Assembly (NCBI GenBank): GCA_002705085.1
Contig: PAHO01000049.1
Location: forward strand, 6,160 to 70,159
Length of the DNA stretch: 64,000 bases
DNA from: Phycisphaerae bacterium
GTDB taxonomy: Bacteria; Planctomycetota; Phycisphaerae; Phycisphaerales; SM1A02
Direction of reading: 5' to 3'
The notes beneath the pieces were generated by a model that did no database searches, was not told the DNA's origin, and saw only the letters and a list, made by a program, of their open reading frames with translations. The translations under genes were made by a program, and so were the position numbers. This document shows, piece after piece, positions 55,498-64,000 of this stretch. Each line of letters begins with the position of its first letter. Position 1 is the first letter of the stretch.

Positions 55498-55770
55498 ATG
55501 GCAAAAGCAGTTGTGGATCCCAACGAACTCCGGCAGTTCGCCAATGACCTCCGCCGATTCAACCAAGATCTGGACAACCACATGCGGATTCTGCAGACTC
55601 GAATGCAGACGCTGGCCCAAAGTTGGCGGGATCAAGAGCAGACGAAATTTACTGCCGAGTTTGAAGAAGCCCTCCGGTCTCTTAGTCGGTTCCGAGAAGC
55701 TTCGGAAGTCCACGCGCCGTTCTTGTTGCGGAAGGCCGAACGCATTGAAGAGTATTTGAAGCAACGCTGA
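55498..55770 (+). CDS. WXG100-like small helical protein (type VII secretion substrate/partner)
   Basis: 90 residues, two helices with the turn QSWRDQEQTKF, where Trp43-Arg44-Asp45 replaces the canonical W-x-G, as in many non-actinobacterial WXG100 proteins. Length (90-100), Leu/Phe heptads before the turn, and the C-terminal helix EASEVHAPFLLRKAERIEEYL fit the family. AAGGAG lies 7 bases before the ATG. It is first of a four-gene operon with an FtsK/SpoIIIE ATPase, which strongly supports the call. The stop overlaps the next ATG by one base. Confidence 0.82.
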   Translation: MAKAVVDPNELRQFANDLRRFNQDLDNHMRILQTRMQTLAQSWRDQEQTKFTAEFEEALRSLSRFREASEVHAPFLLRKAERIEEYLKQR

Positions 55771-56294
55771 TGCCCGGGCAAGGACCATCTGCGAACGTAC
55801 GAGATGTCACAACACTCGAAAAGGCCCAGTGGGCCTTGGTGGCGTATCGCGAAGAAATCCAACAAGGCCTGATTGAAGCACAAGCAGAAGTCGCCCGATT
55901 CACCAATTGGCTCGAACAACAAAGGCCTCAAGAATTGGCTTCCCAAATGCAACGAACCAAGAGAGAACTTGAAAACGCCAAGGCCGATTTGACCCGAGCC
56001 GAAATGATGCAATCAAACATGGGAACCAGTGCTGACACTGAGAGAAAACGAGTGCAACGGGCCAAGCGAAAAATCGATGAACTTCTCCGGCAGCGAGAAG
56101 CATTAAAACGATGGTCTCACAAACTTCAACAAGAACGTTCCTTGTTCACTGCCGCAACCAGTCAACTGGCTTTCCGAGTGGACTCCATCTTCCCGGCGCT
56201 TGAAGCCGACATCAAAAATCGTCGAGATGCATTGGCGGCCTACTTGGCCACTCTGGCCCCAAGGTCCCCAGAGAGGGAGGACCCGAAATCATGA
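55770..56294 (+). CDS. Coiled-coil protein of the WXG100/FtsK operon
   Basis: 174 residues, almost entirely alpha-helical and charged (MQRTKRELENAKADLTRAEMMQ, RKIDELLRQREALKRWSHKLQQERSL). No membrane helix, signal peptide or known domain. TGATG overlap with the WXG100 gene and 4-base overlap with the next gene show tight coupling. It may be a chaperone, adaptor or secreted partner of the WXG100-like protein. No family recognised. Confidence 0.75.
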   Translation: MPGQGPSANVRDVTTLEKAQWALVAYREEIQQGLIEAQAEVARFTNWLEQQRPQELASQMQRTKRELENAKADLTRAEMMQSNMGTSADTERKRVQRAKRKIDELLRQREALKRWSHKLQQERSLFTAATSQLAFRVDSIFPALEADIKNRRDALAAYLATLAPRSPEREDPKS

Positions 56295-56518
56295 GTCTTC
56301 CGGCCGCCAAAACCAGAGCAGAAGCCGCCACCAAGGAACTGAAGCGCACATGGCAAGATTTGTTGTCCAGCTGGGACGATGAGGTCTCAAGATCCATCAC
56401 GAAAACCGGCATCGAACCGATTGATCAAGAACTGTCCCGAACCCTCGAAGCTTTTGAGCGGATGGATGCCCTTATTCGGAAAGCGATGAGCGAGTGCCAA
56501 GAGGAATCAACCTGGTGA
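56291..56518 (+). CDS. Small helical protein of the WXG100/FtsK operon
   Basis: 75 residues, helical, with a W-x-D-type turn (LLSSWDDEVSRS) reminiscent of a WXG-like hairpin, then GIEPIDQELSRTLEAFERMDALI. No signal peptide. ATGA overlap with the upstream gene and GTGA overlap with the ATPase. It could be a second small substrate or an adaptor for the ATPase. No family recognised. Confidence 0.7.
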   Translation: MSLPAAKTRAEAATKELKRTWQDLLSSWDDEVSRSITKTGIEPIDQELSRTLEAFERMDALIRKAMSECQEESTW

Positions 56519-59500
56519 GCTTACGAGAGGACACGGTTGAAATTCTTCGCCACCTTCGAGCGGCTGACGAAGAAGCTGCGTCGGTGGGTCCTGAATCCAA
56601 GGCCCGATTCGACCGAAAGGTTGCTGCGCTTGAGGTCACACACTCAGATCAGCGTGAGTCCCTGCAAGAAGCCCAGAAAGAGGCCAAAGATCAAGGGATT
56701 CAGGACATTGAAAGCACCTATCGACAACAACGAGCGGACGTTGAGGAACAAGCTCGCGAACAGTACGAAGCCCTGAAGGAAGAGGGCACCCAATCCCAGC
56801 AGGAAGCCCAAAGAAAGCGGGCCGCTTTTCTAGAAGCCAAGAAAGAACAAATATGGCTGGCTGAAACGGTGTACGAGTCCTCAGAAGAGAAACCCAACGA
56901 AAAATACGCTCTTGCTGCTTCGACGATCCGGAACCAATGCCGATCCCTAAAGTCGCAAGAAGCCGAACTCGCCAAAAGAATCAGCCGGATTTGGGGAAGG
57001 GGATCGCCACCATCTGAAACCGAATGCCCCGATTCACTGGATACTTTCGTCCAGCAATATCAAGAGGTCATCAGAGCAGCCGATGCCAGCAAAGCGGTTC
57101 GGCTCCTCACCGGCATGACGCCCATCCTCTCGGTCATCATCTTTACGGCCATTGGGGCCGGAGCAGGCTTGGCTTCAGGCTCTCTGGAAAGTTCGTCTGG
57201 GATTGGATTCGGACTGGGCGTGATCATGATTGGCGCCGCGTGGAGAGCAAAAAACAAGCACACGCTCCAACTTCAACATCTCGCCGCCACCACCAATCAT
57301 CATCTTGAGCATATGGAGAACCAGCAACTGGATGTTGCCGCTCAAGTTCGAGATGAAGAAGCACAGTTGTTGATCTCGACCCGAGATCAAGAAATTAAAA
57401 ATGCCGCGGAGAAATATGACCCGAGAATCAAACAACTCGAGGTCCGTCTCGCCGAATCACAAGTCGAGTTCAAGGCAAAGCGAGAGGCCGCCCAGCAAAC
57501 CTACACCGATGCGATTCAGGAGTGCCAAAACCGCCGAGAGCAAGATCTTGAAGCCCTCAACGACCGGCTGGGCCTCGAGCATTTGGAGCAACGGGCACAC
57601 TTGCACCAAAGCCAAGAAAAAGAGGCAAGGGAAGTTCAATCTGCGCGGGAGGCGCAACTCGAGGAGGTGCAGAATTCATGCAAAAGCCACGCCCTCGCGA
57701 TTGCCAATCTGGACCAGAAGTTGCGTCAAGCAACCACGCAATCTCCCGATCCATTGACCAGCCCAACCGACTCATTGGTCCACCGTGCGTATCCAGGAGC
57801 ATCACCCGCAGCTCTCACCCTTGATCTCAGAACACTTCCGGGAGTTCAAGCGGGTTCAGAGTTGACCAAGCAATTTGGCGATTCTCTTGCCCTCCCCTTG
57901 GCCTTGGAATTCCCTGATGCTGCAAGTGTCCTCATTCGCACCGAGGATTCGGGGCGAGCATGGGCGCAGCGATTCATCCGCCGCTCAATGATGAGGATCC
58001 TGACCAGCCTTCCTCCGGGCAAAGTGAGATTCACCATCGTCGACCCCGTTGGTCTGGGACAGTCACTTTCATCGTTTATGCACTTGGCTGATGCCGATGA
58101 ACGACTGGTCAGCAGCCGAATCTGGACCGATCAACGACACATTGAGCAAGCCCTGGTGGACCTGACCGAACATCTTGAAAATGTCATTCAGAAGTACCTC
58201 AGGAACGATTACGAAACCATTGCCCAATACAACGAGGCCGCCGGAGAAATCGCCGAACCGTATCGATTCCTGGTCCTGCAAGACTTCCCAACCAACCTTT
58301 CCGAAGTTGCGGCCAAGCGGCTTGCATCACTACTGACTTCCGGCCCTCGCTGTGGCATCTTCACACTGATTCACCAAGATCGGCGCCATCCGCTCCCGCG
58401 GGGCTTCGATGAGGCAGTCTTGGCACGCGGAACATGGATTTTGGAACAACAGGGCGACCATTTCCATCCCGCTGATCCTGAACTCTCCGACTTCAAAGTG
58501 GAGTTGCAGGAGGAAATCAGCGATGACCAAGCCACCCGTGTCATTCAAGCCATCGGGACGGCCGCGATAGATGCATCACGAGTCGAGGTGCCATTCGCAG
58601 CCGTACAACCAGATGACGGACAAGTCTGGAGCCGAACCTGTGAGGATGAATTGGTCATCCCCCTCGGTCGTTCAGGCGCCAAGAATCTCCAAGAACTTCG
58701 CTTGGGGCGCGGGACCAACCAACACGCGTTGATTGCAGGTCGAACCGGATCAGGCAAATCAACTTTGCTGCACGTTCTCGTCACCAATGCTGCATTGTGG
58801 TATCCCCCAGAAGAACTCTCGTTGTACTTGGTTGACTTCAAGAAAGGTGTGGAATTCAAAACCTACGCCACCCGTGATCTCCCCCATGCCAAGGCCGTCG
58901 CGGTCGAATCTGATCGAGAGTTTGGCCTGTCGGTCCTCGAGCGGATCGATAAAGAACTGGTTGAGCGAGGTGAAATCTTCCGACGACTTGGCGTCCAGAA
59001 TCTCCCGGGATATCGGGCGCTTCCTGAACAACCAGACATGCCTCGAATTCTTCTGGTCATCGATGAATTCCAAGAGTTGTTTGTTGAAGATGACAAGTTG
59101 GCCCAAGATGCCTCCTTGCTGCTGGACCGAATTGTCCGGCAAGGTCGTGCATTTGGTGTTCATGCCATCATGGGATCCCAAACTTTGGGAGGGGCATACG
59201 CACTCGCCAGAAGCACCATGGGCCAAATGCAAATTCGTGTGGCCCTGCAATGCTCAGAGTCAGATTCGTATTTGATCCTTGGTGAGGAAAACGGAGCCGC
59301 TCGGCTTCTGGGTCGACCAGGCGAAGCGATCTACAACGATGCGGGCGGTGATGTTGCTGCCAACTCACCGTTCCAAATTGTTTGGCTTGGTGATGAAGAA
59401 CGGGATGTGACTTTGTCGAAAATCCGGGAACACGCAGGGCCGACGTTCGACCGTCCGGAACCCATGGTGGTCTTCGAAGGCTCTGCTCCGGTCCGAATTG

Positions 59501-60264
59501 AAGATTCAGTCGGCCTCCTTGGGGCAAGCCCGGACCAGGGGCCACAAATTTGGCTGGGCGAACCGGTCGCAATCCGTGGCCCCGTGGGGCTCCCTCTCAA
59601 ACGTCAAGGTGGGGCAAACCTCTTGATGGTCGGTCAACAGCCCGAGCCGGCAACCGGCTTGGTCGCCGCCACCATCGAATCGCTGGCCCGAACCCTCCCG
59701 GAATCAACCTCTGACCGACTGGTGGTGGTGGACGGAACTCCGGTAGAAGATGCTCTGGCTGGGCGATTGTCCTCAGTGGCGCAGGCCCACTCTGGAATCA
59801 CGATCAAATCATGGCGTGAAGCCGATGAAGCAGTGGGCACTTTCCACACCGAACTGAAGGCTCGCTTGGAGAATGGTCGCGAAGATGACCCGACCAGAGT
59901 GCTTATCTTGCACGGGCTGCATCGGTTCCGGGGCCTCCGCACCGTCGAAGATTTCTCATTCAGCGCGAGCGAAGAACCCGCCACCCCTGACAAGCAATTT
60001 GAAGAGTTGCTTCGCGATGGACCCACTGTGGGTCTGCACGTGATCACATGGTGTGACTCTGTCACGAACCTCAATCGAACAATTGCCCGTGGCACCTTGC
60101 GTGACTTTGAACTCAAGGTGTTGTTACAAATGAGCGCGGCCGATTCCAGCTTGCTGGTCGATGCCCCAGCGGCCGCCCAGTTGGGGGGATCCCGGGCCCT
60201 GCTCTCGATCGAGGAAACCAATCAACTTGAGAAATTCCGGCCCTACCGACTCCGCGGCTCCTGA
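56515..60264 (+). CDS. FtsK/SpoIIIE-type ATPase of a type VII secretion-like system (EccC/EssC-like)
   Basis: 1249 residues. N-terminal coiled coil (~1-165), a membrane hairpin (~197-242: LLTGMTPILSVIIFTAIGAGAGL, IGFGLGVIMIGAAW) and a second coiled coil (~250-410). A degenerate first ATPase-like module (~430-700) lacks a P-loop. The active module has Walker A GRTGSGKSTLL (742-752) and Walker B RILLVIDEFQEL (from 843). A third degenerate module (~1010-1249: NLLMVGQQPEPATGL, LLQMSAADSSLLVDAPAA) follows. A multi-module FtsK ATPase beside a WXG100 gene is the hallmark of ESX/T7SS, but the coiled-coil N-terminus replaces FHA/ubiquitin-like parts. GTG start with a GTGA overlap. Confidence 0.88.
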   Translation: MSLREDTVEILRHLRAADEEAASVGPESKARFDRKVAALEVTHSDQRESLQEAQKEAKDQGIQDIESTYRQQRADVEEQAREQYEALKEEGTQSQQEAQRKRAAFLEAKKEQIWLAETVYESSEEKPNEKYALAASTIRNQCRSLKSQEAELAKRISRIWGRGSPPSETECPDSLDTFVQQYQEVIRAADASKAVRLLTGMTPILSVIIFTAIGAGAGLASGSLESSSGIGFGLGVIMIGAAWRAKNKHTLQLQHLAATTNHHLEHMENQQLDVAAQVRDEEAQLLISTRDQEIKNAAEKYDPRIKQLEVRLAESQVEFKAKREAAQQTYTDAIQECQNRREQDLEALNDRLGLEHLEQRAHLHQSQEKEAREVQSAREAQLEEVQNSCKSHALAIANLDQKLRQATTQSPDPLTSPTDSLVHRAYPGASPAALTLDLRTLPGVQAGSELTKQFGDSLALPLALEFPDAASVLIRTEDSGRAWAQRFIRRSMMRILTSLPPGKVRFTIVDPVGLGQSLSSFMHLADADERLVSSRIWTDQRHIEQALVDLTEHLENVIQKYLRNDYETIAQYNEAAGEIAEPYRFLVLQDFPTNLSEVAAKRLASLLTSGPRCGIFTLIHQDRRHPLPRGFDEAVLARGTWILEQQGDHFHPADPELSDFKVELQEEISDDQATRVIQAIGTAAIDASRVEVPFAAVQPDDGQVWSRTCEDELVIPLGRSGAKNLQELRLGRGTNQHALIAGRTGSGKSTLLHVLVTNAALWYPPEELSLYLVDFKKGVEFKTYATRDLPHAKAVAVESDREFGLSVLERIDKELVERGEIFRRLGVQNLPGYRALPEQPDMPRILLVIDEFQELFVEDDKLAQDASLLLDRIVRQGRAFGVHAIMGSQTLGGAYALARSTMGQMQIRVALQCSESDSYLILGEENGAARLLGRPGEAIYNDAGGDVAANSPFQIVWLGDEERDVTLSKIREHAGPTFDRPEPMVVFEGSAPVRIEDSVGLLGASPDQGPQIWLGEPVAIRGPVGLPLKRQGGANLLMVGQQPEPATGLVAATIESLARTLPESTSDRLVVVDGTPVEDALAGRLSSVAQAHSGITIKSWREADEAVGTFHTELKARLENGREDDPTRVLILHGLHRFRGLRTVEDFSFSASEEPATPDKQFEELLRDGPTVGLHVITWCDSVTNLNRTIARGTLRDFELKVLLQMSAADSSLLVDAPAAAQLGGSRALLSIEETNQLEKFRPYRLRGS

Positions 60265-61617
60265 TCAATCTGAGTCAAAGAGGGATTGAAGGATGGCATC
60301 ACGGACGAATGCCATTGGCTGCTCCGGGCCCACACCATTGCAACCAAGCAGCACTGGACGGTGCATGGGGTCGACCTGAACGCGGCCATGGGACCCCCCG
60401 ACCAGTTCGGGGCGCAGCGGAATCACATCAAACAACGTCCGGAAGCCCATCTTTTTGGCCATCAATTTTTGAATCACTTTGGCTTTGGTGAGCAGACCAG
60501 GCTCCATGAACAATTCACAGGGGTCATACCCAGGCTTCCGGTGGATATCGACGGTACGGGCATAGTCAGGCGCTCGCACATCCTGCTCCCACCAGTCATA
60601 GGTGAACCATGCACCGGGCTCAGCCACCAAAACCAGATCTCCGGCCCGGGGATGATCCAAATCGCCTCGGGCTGCTCCACGAAGAACCTCGGCAACACCA
60701 TCAACCTCCGCCAGATGGCTGGCCAAAGCGTCAAGATCTCCTCCACCGGGGCAATACACCTGAGCCACCTGGTGATCGGCCACGGCGAAGGCCTTGGACT
60801 CTCCGGGATCCAAATACTCCCGGCCCTCTTCAAGGCGGAATGCAACCTGGCCCAGTTGGCGAAGAACCTGATTGATTCGAATGGGCCGCTGAACCGGCTC
60901 GATCCCGTATTCAGAAACCACCAAGATGCGTCGCCCCATTCGACGCAAATCAGTGATCAATCCTCCAACCACTTGGTCCAAATCTTGGGCCGACTGCACC
61001 GAACGAGGGTCTTCAGGGCCAAAGCGCTGGAAGTCATAGTCCAGATGGGGCAAATACGTCAACGTCAATGTGGGATCGTGCTGTTCCACCACGTACTTGG
61101 TGGCTTGGGCGATCCACTCGGTTGATTTCAGATTGGCGGTTGGCCCCCAGAAATTGAACAATGGAAAAACACCCAACTCGCGTTGCAGAGCATCGCGGAG
61201 TTCCATCGGCTTGGTGTGAATATCAGGAAGCTTCCGGCCGTCCGCGCGGTATTGGGGACGAGGCGTGGCCGCAAACTCGACCGAAGCGTGCATGTTGAAC
61301 CACCAAAACAACTTGGCCGTGGTGACCGAAGGATCACGACGACGGGCGGTTTCCCAAACTTTCTCCCCCTTCACCAAGTGATTGGATTGCTTCCAAAAAC
61401 GAACTTCCGCTTGTTCACGTTCAAACCACCCATTGCCGATCACGCCATGCTCAGCAGGAGAGAGCCCCGTCAGCATGGTGGCTTGAGCACTGCACGTGAC
61501 GGCGGGAAGGACCGGAACCAAATCGGTGACGGCTCCCACACTGGCCAGATTCGGCATGTGCTTGAGGGCGGCCCGGTCAAGGCCCACCACATTCAGAACC
61601 ACAGTTGGATGGGGCAT
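60265..61617 (-). CDS. eboF: EboF-type alkaline phosphatase superfamily / type I phosphodiesterase
   Basis: 450 residues. The alkaline-phosphatase-superfamily metal and nucleophile region is NVVGLDRAALKHMPNL, then VTCSAQATMLTGLSPAEHGVIGNGW with the Thr/Ser near the nucleophile, plus LTYLPHLDYDFQRFG and AVADHQVAQVY for metal His/Asp. This nucleotide-pyrophosphatase-like family forms the eboF member of ebo clusters. No signal peptide is seen. It lies 12 bases after eboC. Its stop is back-to-back with that of the ATPase gene. Confidence 0.85.
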   Translation of the reverse strand: MPHPTVVLNVVGLDRAALKHMPNLASVGAVTDLVPVLPAVTCSAQATMLTGLSPAEHGVIGNGWFEREQAEVRFWKQSNHLVKGEKVWETARRRDPSVTTAKLFWWFNMHASVEFAATPRPQYRADGRKLPDIHTKPMELRDALQRELGVFPLFNFWGPTANLKSTEWIAQATKYVVEQHDPTLTLTYLPHLDYDFQRFGPEDPRSVQSAQDLDQVVGGLITDLRRMGRRILVVSEYGIEPVQRPIRINQVLRQLGQVAFRLEEGREYLDPGESKAFAVADHQVAQVYCPGGGDLDALASHLAEVDGVAEVLRGAARGDLDHPRAGDLVLVAEPGAWFTYDWWEQDVRAPDYARTVDIHRKPGYDPCELFMEPGLLTKAKVIQKLMAKKMGFRTLFDVIPLRPELVGGSHGRVQVDPMHRPVLLGCNGVGPEQPMAFVRDAILQSLFDSD

Positions 61618-61629
61618 GACACCAGTCTC

Positions 61630-62499
61630 TCAGGTTGCGGGCAGAAATCGTTGCAAGAGGCGAGAAAGAACAAAACAAATGGTGGCCAAAGCCATCGAAG
61701 GCACATGAAGCACCAAAGAGGCAACGACCAAATCAACGGCCGAGAAGCCAGCAATCCACGCGCCAACCGCTTGCCCCGGCTGATCGCTCCGCCGCTTTCT
61801 CTCGCAAGCGAATTCCCAAACCAGCCACCCCAACATGGCCAACAGCCCGGGATCTGCGATCCAATCCATCAGGGCAGTTCCTGGCGGATCGAGCAGAATG
61901 AAGGTTCCGAGGGGGAGAAGCCTCGTCAAAGGAACCAACCCACCCGGCCCCGGCCGTTGCCGGTGTTCCTGACTTGCCGCCATCGTAATGGCCGCACCTG
62001 CCGCCCCGTGGGCCAATGTCAAGGTCAATACAATTGGCGTTGAAATACCACTGGCGCCATCTCCCAGCATCGCCGCGGCCACCAGCACCGCCATACCCCG
62101 GCAGGTGCCAAGCAACAACGCAGCCAACCACACCGAAGACTTGTGGCACCATGAATACAAGACGATGGCGGTAAGCAAGATCACCGCTTCGGTCTGGGCC
62201 AAGTTCCAAGCCAATCCCAAACAAAGGATGCCGCAGAAGATCGCCGCCAAGATGACCTGCGATCGCGGCACCAATTCTTGGGGAAGGGGACGCTGCGGAT
62301 GATGTTCTAGGTCAAATGAGAGGTCAAAAACATCATTGAGGAGCATGCCACCGACATAGGCCGCAACGATGGCCAACCCCACGCACGCGACTTCAGAGGA
62401 TTCACCGCCATACAGAGCCCACGCACCCGCAATGGAAGAAAGGGCCGTGGGAGCATTTCCCAGCCTCATCAAACGCAGCCAAGCTTGGATGATGCTCAC
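61630..62499 (-). CDS. eboC: EboC-type UbiA-family prenyltransferase
   Basis: 289 residues, eight to nine membrane helices. The UbiA metal-diphosphate motif is LLNDVFDLSFDLEHHPQRPLP (N-D-x-x-D type); the second motif is weaker (ALMDWIADPG). In the ebo cluster this enzyme is thought to prenylate or handle a lipid-linked metabolite at the membrane. GTG start with GTGA overlap with eboE. Confidence 0.88.
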   Translation of the reverse strand: MSIIQAWLRLMRLGNAPTALSSIAGAWALYGGESSEVACVGLAIVAAYVGGMLLNDVFDLSFDLEHHPQRPLPQELVPRSQVILAAIFCGILCLGLAWNLAQTEAVILLTAIVLYSWCHKSSVWLAALLLGTCRGMAVLVAAAMLGDGASGISTPIVLTLTLAHGAAGAAITMAASQEHRQRPGPGGLVPLTRLLPLGTFILLDPPGTALMDWIADPGLLAMLGWLVWEFACERKRRSDQPGQAVGAWIAGFSAVDLVVASLVLHVPSMALATICFVLSRLLQRFLPAT

Positions 62500-63551
62500 G
62501 ACAAAGACTCCAATTCCAAAGCAATGCCTTCCACCAGATCCGGACGCACCAAATCAGGGAGGGCAGACCAAGCGTAGGTCTCGACTTCGACAATGCGATC
62601 TTCGTCATGTGGCAATGCCGCCAACACGGAAAAGATCTCATCTCGAGTGGTTCCCAGTGGCCCCAACTGTTCCAAGTGCACGGGAACATGGAAATGCACC
62701 CGGGCCAACCCTTCTTGTTCCTTGAAGACATCAGCGAGATCCTCAAACCTCGCCAATCCAGTCGCCGTCTCGACGGAAGTTTGGTGCAGCCAACGTGGCT
62801 CATCCAACTGCCTCAAAAAATCTCGCTGCTCGGGAACCGACAAATCAACAACCGGGATACTGGAACATTGCACTTTCCCAATACGGATGTTCGCCTGTTG
62901 GTACGCAGATACTGCTTGGTCTTGAGGTTCACGGACCACCGCGGCATGGCAAGTGTCATGGCACACACCGAGATATCGACGGATGGAAGGATCATCGCCG
63001 AGCCGGTCAAACAGGCCGATCACATCCGAGGAACATTCAAGAAGACAGTCCGGCTCTGGCTCCACATCCACCACCACGCGGATGCCCGATTCGTCTTCAA
63101 GAGTCGACAGAAATCTGGCCAAAGCGCGAAGATGTTCCACGGCGGCGGAGAAAATGTTGGGGCCGAGTTCTTGATGGCCAATGGGGACCGTTGAAATCTC
63201 ACGCACGGGTCCATGACCAATTTTGACCAACACTTCGGCCAAGCGCTGGGTGTATCGCAAACGTTCTGGGTCTCCCCAGTGGGGCCGGTAAACCGATCTC
63301 TTCACCACTGGGGCATGAAAGGAAGACTGGGGAAATCCGTTGCAGCCACGCACCACCGCCCCCACCCGAGCCAAATCGTCGGCCAAGCATTCAACCGCAG
63401 GGTCAAATACGACAGCATCATTGATCCAAAGCCCCACTTCCAATGCATCGAGACCCAAACGCTGACGAACCGATCGCACCGGTCCGTTCAACATCGAGCG
63501 AATATCCGGCAGAGACTCCGCCGCGTGCACGTTGGTGCAATAACCAATCAC
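62496..63551 (-). CDS. eboE: EboE-like TIM-barrel metabolite traffic protein
   Basis: 351 residues of the xylose-isomerase/endonuclease IV-like TIM-barrel fold. Start GYCTNVHAAESLPDI, NGFPQSSFHAPVVKRSVYRPHW, VDVEPEPDCLLE, GVCHDTCHAAVV, RVHFHVPVH and IVEVETYAWSAL carry the metal-ligand His/Glu/Asp series. This pattern defines EboE. GTG start with GTGA overlap with eboD. Confidence 0.88.
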   Translation of the reverse strand: MIGYCTNVHAAESLPDIRSMLNGPVRSVRQRLGLDALEVGLWINDAVVFDPAVECLADDLARVGAVVRGCNGFPQSSFHAPVVKRSVYRPHWGDPERLRYTQRLAEVLVKIGHGPVREISTVPIGHQELGPNIFSAAVEHLRALARFLSTLEDESGIRVVVDVEPEPDCLLECSSDVIGLFDRLGDDPSIRRYLGVCHDTCHAAVVREPQDQAVSAYQQANIRIGKVQCSSIPVVDLSVPEQRDFLRQLDEPRWLHQTSVETATGLARFEDLADVFKEQEGLARVHFHVPVHLEQLGPLGTTRDEIFSVLAALPHDEDRIVEVETYAWSALPDLVRPDLVEGIALELESLS

Positions 63552-64000
63552 ACCTGAAGGGTACGAACCATTGATCGATGGCGTTCAATGGCGCCGGAGA
63601 TCGAAGCAAAATCAGCGTCGTGGATGTCAAAAGAGACACCAGGCTCTGCCACCAACGTCAGGACCAGAGCCCCCCCCAAATGGGCACGGAACTGTTCAAT
63701 CCCCACAAAAAGCTCGGATGGGTCGTCGAGTTGAGGATGATCGAGCGTGAACCCGAACTTGTGAAGCACACTCAGCACGCGACGTTGGAAATCTGGAGTA
63801 GACCGCCCCAGTTCAACCGCCAAGGCCGCGTCGATGCCCAGACCGATGGCAACCGCCTCACCATGCTTGAGTTCACCTTGGGTCAAACGTTCGAGGCGAT
63901 GCGCGGACCAATGACCGTAGTCCAGAGGGCGAGCAATCTCATCTTCGAAGGGATCGCCACCTTCGACAATATGTTGCCAATGGAGTTCAGCACTGCGAAC
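63548..64000 (-). CDS. eboD: EboD-type 3-dehydroquinate synthase-like protein (5' part missing)
   Basis: The frame is open from the right edge (151 codons). Seen: ARPLDYGHWSAHRLERLTQ and LKHGEAVAIGLGIDAALAVELG, the metal-binding His and Lys-His-Gly-Glu motif of dehydroquinate synthase. The ebo context indicates a sugar-phosphate cyclase rather than the housekeeping aroB. The N-terminal NAD-binding half lies outside the window, as eboA and eboB, if present, would also. Confidence 0.88.
   Translation of the reverse strand, partial: VRSAELHWQHIVEGGDPFEDEIARPLDYGHWSAHRLERLTQGELKHGEAVAIGLGIDAALAVELGRSTPDFQRRVLSVLHKFGFTLDHPQLDDPSELFVGIEQFRAHLGGALVLTLVAEPGVSFDIHDADFASISGAIERHRSMVRTLQV

What the first reader, a model, noticed from the sequence alone, without database searches (positions are those of the whole stretch)
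55498..60264. Minimal four-gene WXG100/FtsK secretion-like system
A WXG100-like protein with WRD, two small helical proteins and an FtsK/SpoIIIE ATPase with one intact and two degenerate modules are joined by 1-4 base overlaps. The ATPase carries long coiled coils on both sides of its membrane hairpin. EccB/D/E, EssA/B, EsaA, YukD, mycosin and toxin genes are absent nearby. In a two-membrane organism this needs a different outer-membrane route, or the system may move WXG proteins only across the inner membrane. The 75-residue protein also has a W-x-D turn and may be a second substrate.
Basis: partly seen in the sequence, partly recalled or inferred. Interest (0 to 1): 0.72.

Follow-up and report, generated by a model that had tools for sequence, protein, structure and literature searches.

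The report
Membrane-anchored WXG100–ATPase operon of planctomycetes
This is a conserved four-gene unit of planctomycetes and their relatives that resembles the core of the type VII secretion machine of Gram-positive bacteria (an ATPase motor plus two small WXG-type proteins and a helical hairpin protein); it is a membrane-anchored stand-alone version of an operon type already described elsewhere, and whether it exports anything across the two-membrane envelope is untested.

Summary
At 55498-60264 a WXG100 protein (PF06013, above cut-off), a 174-aa long helical hairpin, a 75-aa protein and an FtsK/SpoIIIE-family ATPase are translationally coupled. The 75-aa protein is a second WXG-type protein (invariant W-x-D). 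The ATPase has three RecA-like modules, only the central one intact; its fold matches EccC/EssC best, but by sequence it is a branch apart from FtsK/SpoIIIE and EccC. The set is conserved: 60 of 62 loci with enough upstream DNA carry all four genes. The WXG gene is single-copy in 116 of 394 Planctomycetota genomes. In 12 genomes with a split cassette, all 12 encode the ATPase elsewhere. A membrane hairpin at a fixed distance from Walker A is found in 56 of 59 PVC ATPases, but in none of six plasmid/phage-contig relatives. The kind is not new: Zhang 2012 noted WXG plus ATPase with only the middle module active in planctomycetes, and the CoCoNuT paper (2024) describes two WXG proteins, a coiled-coil-nuclease and this ATPase, soluble. 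New here: the membrane-anchored, nuclease-free stand-alone branch and its four-gene definition. Most likely it exports WXG-type proteins across the inner membrane; export is not shown and the canonical YxxxD/E signal is absent.

The parts
55498..55770 (+). WXG100-type protein, 90 aa, motif W43-R-D45 instead of WxG; invariant C-terminus P-[FY]-L-L-R-K-A..[IV]-[ED]..Y-L-x-Q-R
   Evidence: PF06013 above cut-off; alignment A1 of 34 relatives; Shine-Dalgarno AAAGGAG upstream
55770..56294 (+). P174: long two-helix hairpin (helices 14-80 and 87-162) with a disordered tail
   Evidence: AF2 pLDDT 90.4, helices about 97; alignment A2; no family hit above cut-off
56291..56518 (+). P75: second, shorter WXG-like protein, invariant W28-x-D30
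   Evidence: P75 profile matches 29 of 34 WXG proteins and 0 of 1020 shuffles; hhalign A3 vs A1 E 2.9e-4 with W-x-D aligned
56515..60264 (+). Membrane-anchored EccC/EssC-like ATPase (longest frame from GTG 56494, likely start GTG 56515)
   Evidence: PF01580, PDB sequence matches EccC, fold match 4nh0 E 1e-30
57100..57243 (+). Membrane hairpin (residues about 203-250 of the longest frame), flanked by charged helical, coiled-coil-like stretches
   Evidence: hydropathy; same place in 56 of 59 relatives
57883..58518 (+). RecA-like module 1, degenerate (no Walker A/B)
   Evidence: AF2 model, alignments A4 and A5
58648..59430 (+). RecA-like module 2, intact: Walker A 58738-58761 (GRTGSGKS), Walker B around 59050-59082 (LLVIDEFQELF)
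   Evidence: PF01580 match 718-897; invariant residues
59578..60255 (+). RecA-like module 3, degenerate
   Evidence: AF2 model; fold match to EccC/EssC ATPases 2 and 3

Best explanation
A stand-alone, membrane-anchored branch of the WXG100/EssC-like ATPase operon, acting as a reduced type VII-like exporter. The ATPase would form a ring (inferred, as for FtsK-superfamily ATPases) held in the inner membrane by six hairpins. The central module hydrolyses ATP (motifs shown, activity inferred). The WXG protein and P75 pair like EsxA/EsxB and bind the degenerate C-terminal module (inferred from EccC/EssC). P174, a long hairpin, is adaptor or cargo; in plasmid and CoCoNuT relatives the protein in its place carries a C-terminal nuclease, and in some planctomycetes an Imm33-like domain. 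Product: movement of WXG-type proteins across the inner membrane. How, or whether, they reach the outside is not known. Shown here: gene set, co-inheritance, membrane hairpin, fold, ATPase class, relation of P75 to WXG. Inferred: ring, pairing, export, cargo role.
For: WXG100 match. P75 related to WXG. Three-module fold closest to EccC/EssC, with FtsK motors far behind. ATPase branch separate from FtsK/SpoIIIE. Conserved membrane hairpin. Four-gene set in 60 of 62 loci and 28 of 40 further genomes, with the ATPase elsewhere in all 12 split ones. P174 family aligned to the N-terminal part of a 314-aa protein in a Rhodococcus plasmid cassette (E 3.9e-6). In a Helicobacter plasmid cassette the P174-slot protein ends in a WHH nuclease (E 1e-11) and is followed by a SUKH immunity gene, the layout of an exported toxin.
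Against: No YxxxD/E in any of 34 WXG and 34 P75 proteins. No other T7SS component found in the genome. No outer-membrane route known. No toxin or WXG-fused substrate; exactly one WXG gene per positive planctomycete genome, odd for a toxin exporter. P174 homology to the Helicobacter and Caballeronia slot proteins is not significant by profile; there it is positional. Soluble relatives lack the hairpin, so export is not the family's only possible role.
Confidence: 0.52

Rival explanations
1. A membrane-bound conflict or defence module that does not export: the WXG pair and P174 act as sensors or adaptors on the ATPase, as the related cassettes sit inside CoCoNuT/TerY-P defence islands.
For: Closest non-PVC cassettes lie with VWA, CARF, PP2C and kinase genes or TerD genes; PVC genomes G427 and G601 carry that form as a second copy; Imm33-like domain on some P174.
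Against: The PVC unit stands alone, shows no conserved defence neighbours, is single-copy and nearly universal in its family (35 of 37 genomes), unlike patchy defence genes; no defence model matches beyond the ATPase module.
Confidence: 0.18
2. A housekeeping envelope or cell-organisation machine of PVC bacteria: the WXG/P75/P174 proteins are structural partners of the ATPase, not cargo.
For: Single copy in every positive planctomycete genome sampled, kept in genomes of about 2 Mb; the WXG protein is the most conserved of the small proteins (mean column identity 65%, against 39% and 23%); unlinked but always co-occurring in 12 of 12.
Against: Absent from most order-level relatives and about 70% of sampled Planctomycetota, so not essential to the phylum; kinship to WXG100/EccC points to export.
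Confidence: 0.22
3. A DNA translocase: an FtsK-type DNA pump with coiled-coil partners.
For: Family PF01580; long coiled coils recall SMC-type proteins.
Against: Sequence and fold nearer to EccC/EssC; the tree separates it from FtsK/SpoIIIE (99/97); the genome has its own FtsK; constant WXG partners.
Confidence: 0.06

Closest known systems
[quoted passage not shown] its stand-alone mobile form attributed there to Anantharaman 2012)
   Same: ATPase with three modules of which only the central is active, N-terminal coiled coil, two WXG100-type proteins (one lacking the usual motif), a coiled-coil protein between them
   Different: PVC unit has a conserved membrane hairpin, no nuclease domain, no DNA-mimic or immunity-like gene, no VWA/PP2C/kinase partners; both forms occur side by side in genomes G427 and G601
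Solo WXG with a distinct YueA-like ATPase, only the middle HerA/FtsK domain active (PMC3482391, Table 1 note 6: planctomycetes and verrucomicrobia named)
   Same: Same pair in the same phyla; our unit is very probably among what was meant
   Different: That note names no P174, P75, membrane hairpin or four-gene structure and calls it mobile; in this family it is near-universal and single-copy
Type VII secretion systems (T7SSa, T7SSb and T7SSc-j; PMC11217815)
   Same: WXG100 protein plus multi-module EccC/EssC-type ATPase anchored in the membrane
   Different: Different active module and membrane anchor position, no YukD/EssB, no YxxxD/E, ATPase on a separate branch
Rhodococcus sp. AH-ZY2 plasmid cassette (L113)
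   Same: ATPase (38% identical over 94% of the query), P174-like N-terminus, W-R-D small protein, WXG protein
   Different: Gene order inverted, P174 homologue has an unassigned C-terminal domain, no hairpin at the PVC position, TerD neighbours

Membership tests
[quoted passage not shown]
   PF06013 above cut-off, though the motif is W-R-D; below the TIGR03930 cut-off
Type VII secretion system (T7SS) | EccC/EssC-family membrane ATPase | tested here: inconclusive
   Fold matches EccC best, but below EccC/EssC equivalog cut-offs and on a separate branch
Type VII secretion system (T7SS) | C-terminal YxxxD/E export signal | tested here: not met
   0 of 34 WXG, 0 of 34 P75
Type VII secretion system (T7SS) | Further core parts (YukD, EssB; EccB) | tested here: not met
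   YukD and YukC/EssB absent from genome; EccB search uninformative
Type VII secretion system (T7SS) | ATP-dependent secretion of WXG proteins | not testable with these tools
   needs experiment
WXG100/FtsK-like operon with middle-active ATPase (PMC3482391, PMC11090510) | Three-module ATPase, only the central module active | tested here: met
WXG100/FtsK-like operon with middle-active ATPase (PMC3482391, PMC11090510) | Two WXG100-type proteins and a coiled-coil protein | tested here: met
CoCoNuT-associated form of that operon | Coiled-coil-nuclease fusion, ATPase without membrane segment, VWA/TerY-P neighbours | tested here: not met
   P174 ends without a nuclease; hairpin present; neighbours unrelated
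Chromosomal FtsK/SpoIIIE | Motor groups with FtsK/SpoIIIE | tested here: not met
   tree 99/97 separation; separate FtsK on contig C20

The most novel reading that the evidence does not exclude
A functional type VII-like protein exporter of true two-membrane bacteria, built from four genes, recognising substrates by a signal other than YxxxD/E, and used for a conserved, non-toxin purpose in planctomycetes and verrucomicrobia.
Probability: 0.3. Interest if true: 0.82.

Novelty: new variant of a known kind. Interest (0 to 1): 0.52.

Why it matters
[quoted passage not shown] This unit is a defined, minimal, single-copy, widely conserved case in phyla with cultivable members, so the question whether a type VII-like machine works in a diderm envelope becomes directly testable. 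The contrast within one genome between a membrane-anchored nuclease-free copy and a soluble nuclease-bearing copy may also show how secretion parts and defence modules turn into one another.

Tried and rejected
Viral contigs: six pattern matches, none a relative. Fold search with the P174 model gave only generic coiled coils, no E below 0.001. Conserved neighbours beyond the four genes: none (frequent antisense 'genes' there are frame artefacts). PADLOC: SspH, mad8 and HerA matches over the ATPase module only, read as superfamily kinship. P174 versus Helicobacter and Caballeronia slot proteins by profile: not significant. P75 versus the small proteins of those plasmids: not significant; Rhodococcus weak, E 0.005 with W-R-D aligned. 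Searching the literature for WXG100 together with planctomycetes and type VII secretion found nothing; the decisive prior notes came from full-text reading. Sutcliffe 2011 and Unnikrishnan 2017 are not held, so what they say of planctomycetes could not be read.

Full report
What is there. Four overlapping plus-strand genes lie at 55498-60264 between a divergently oriented MFS gene and a convergent minus-strand operon. The first encodes a 90-aa WXG100 protein (PF06013, E 1.2e-8). The second encodes a 174-aa protein that AF2 models as two long helices, 14-80 and 87-162. The third encodes a 75-aa protein. The fourth encodes an FtsK/SpoIIIE-family ATPase of 1249-1256 aa. The genome (1.98 Mb, 53 contigs, about 90% complete) holds exactly two FtsK-family genes, the chromosomal FtsK and this one, and one WXG100 gene. 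Its nearest named relatives are marine Phycisphaeraceae/Phycisphaerae MAGs.

The small proteins. In 59 relatives the WXG protein keeps W and D in W-x-D (mostly W-R-D) and an invariant C-terminal patch (P74, L76, R78-K79-A80, Y86). P75 has its own invariant W-x-D in 59 of 59, with the same spacing to a following hydrophobic residue. A P75 profile matches 29 of 34 WXG proteins at E<0.01 and none of 1020 shuffled sequences; the reverse search finds 7 of 34. P174 diverges fast (mean column identity 23%), with an acidic or disordered tail. In some Phycisphaerae it has an Imm33-like domain there: PF24719 above cut-off in L036, L039, L139 and L140, below it in L055 and L145.

The ATPase. Sequence searches put EccC first (4nh0, E 8e-32), but the curated EccC/EssC equivalog cut-offs are not reached. 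AF2 of residues 430-1256 (pLDDT 83.5) gives three RecA-like modules. Foldseek matches the EccC and EssC cytoplasmic domains over several modules (E 1e-30 to 1e-17) and FtsK motors over one (E 1e-15). Only the central module has Walker motifs, invariant in 31 relatives. A tree of that module places PVC and plasmid WXG/FtsK ATPases together (91/92), apart from FtsK/SpoIIIE plus SspH-like (99/97) and EccC; several branches are long and the deep order is weak. A hydrophobic hairpin about 550 and 523 residues before Walker A is present in 56 of 59 PVC ATPases, but at that place in none of six plasmid or phage-contig relatives. Of the three not counted, the Walker pattern was missed in two (L094 does have a hydrophobic pair there).

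Conservation. 35 of 37 genomes of the same family carry the ATPase, together with a minority of the order. A single scan of named genomes found 216 relatives; the 80 kept are mostly Planctomycetota and Verrucomicrobiota (some MAG labels differ and may be misassigned). Of 62 loci with at least 1.5 kb upstream, 60 have all three small genes (a few genomes are counted twice, from two collections). The WXG profile is found in 116 of 394 Planctomycetota genomes, always once, and in 14 of 241 genomes of a verrucomicrobial locus's phylum. Of 40 further planctomycete loci, 28 have the four genes adjacent. The other 12 lack an adjacent ATPase, and all 12 genomes encode it elsewhere. This is strong evidence that WXG protein and ATPase work together.

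Relatives that inform function. Five plasmids carry related cassettes. In a Helicobacter plasmid the protein between WXG and the small pre-ATPase protein ends in a WHH nuclease, followed by a SUKH immunity gene. In Rhodococcus the P174-like N-terminus (E 3.9e-6) precedes an unassigned domain. In Caballeronia, and as second copies in PVC genomes G427 and G601 (L206, L207), the cassette sits among VWA, PP2C and kinase genes. This is the layout described as an extension of CoCoNuT systems, with two WXG100 proteins, a coiled-coil-restriction-endonuclease protein, a DNA-mimic-like protein and a three-module ATPase with only the centre active and no transmembrane segments (PMC11090510). Zhang et al. 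had noted solo WXG with a middle-active YueA-like ATPase in planctomycetes and verrucomicrobia (PMC3482391).

Mechanism. I favour inner-membrane export of the WXG-type proteins, with P174 as adaptor or cargo carrier. Shown: components, fold, membrane hairpin, co-inheritance. Inferred: hexamer, WXG:P75 pairing, binding to the third module, export. Against it: the canonical YxxxD/E signal is absent from all 68 small proteins examined; YukD, EssB and LXG are missing genome-wide; the single copy and lack of toxins fit a fixed physiological role better than warfare.

Verdict. Real, conserved, and a new variant of a known kind: the membrane-anchored, nuclease-free, stand-alone branch. It should not be filed as a T7SS proper, since one tested defining feature (YxxxD/E) and the accessory core components are not met; it may still work like one.

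Noticed in passing
window 60265-64000, minus strand: Convergent neighbour operon looks like an Ebo-type metabolite traffic operon: EboE (NF035939 over cut-off), EboC-like UbiA prenyltransferase, AroB-like protein, alkaline-phosphatase-family protein.
   Followed up: partly
L117 9131-13536 (Helicobacter plasmid NZ_AP024820.1): A Gram-negative plasmid WXG/ATPase cassette with a WHH nuclease protein and SUKH immunity gene between the WXG and ATPase genes.
   Followed up: partly
L206 3616-15004 and L207 5666-17001: Second, nuclease-type WXG/ATPase cassettes with VWA, PP2C and kinase genes in PVC genomes that also hold the stand-alone unit.
   Followed up: partly
L036, L039, L139, L140 (P174 C-terminus); weaker in L055, L145: Imm33-like domain fused to P174 in several planctomycete loci, without an obvious toxin partner.
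   Followed up: partly
L118 2037-7371 (human gut 'phage' contig MT836827.1): Related three-module ATPase followed by a protein with a WXG-like N-terminus and a HELGH metallopeptidase-like stretch; a serine-recombinase-like gene is nearby, so probably a mobile element.
   Followed up: no
L159, L161, L164, L168, L169: Genomes where the WXG gene stands alone, far from its ATPase; where P174 and P75 lie there was not resolved.
   Followed up: partly
L208 6524-8341: WXG-like match inside a long frame with a P75-like end, and a VWA gene downstream; possibly a degraded or misframed cassette.
   Followed up: no
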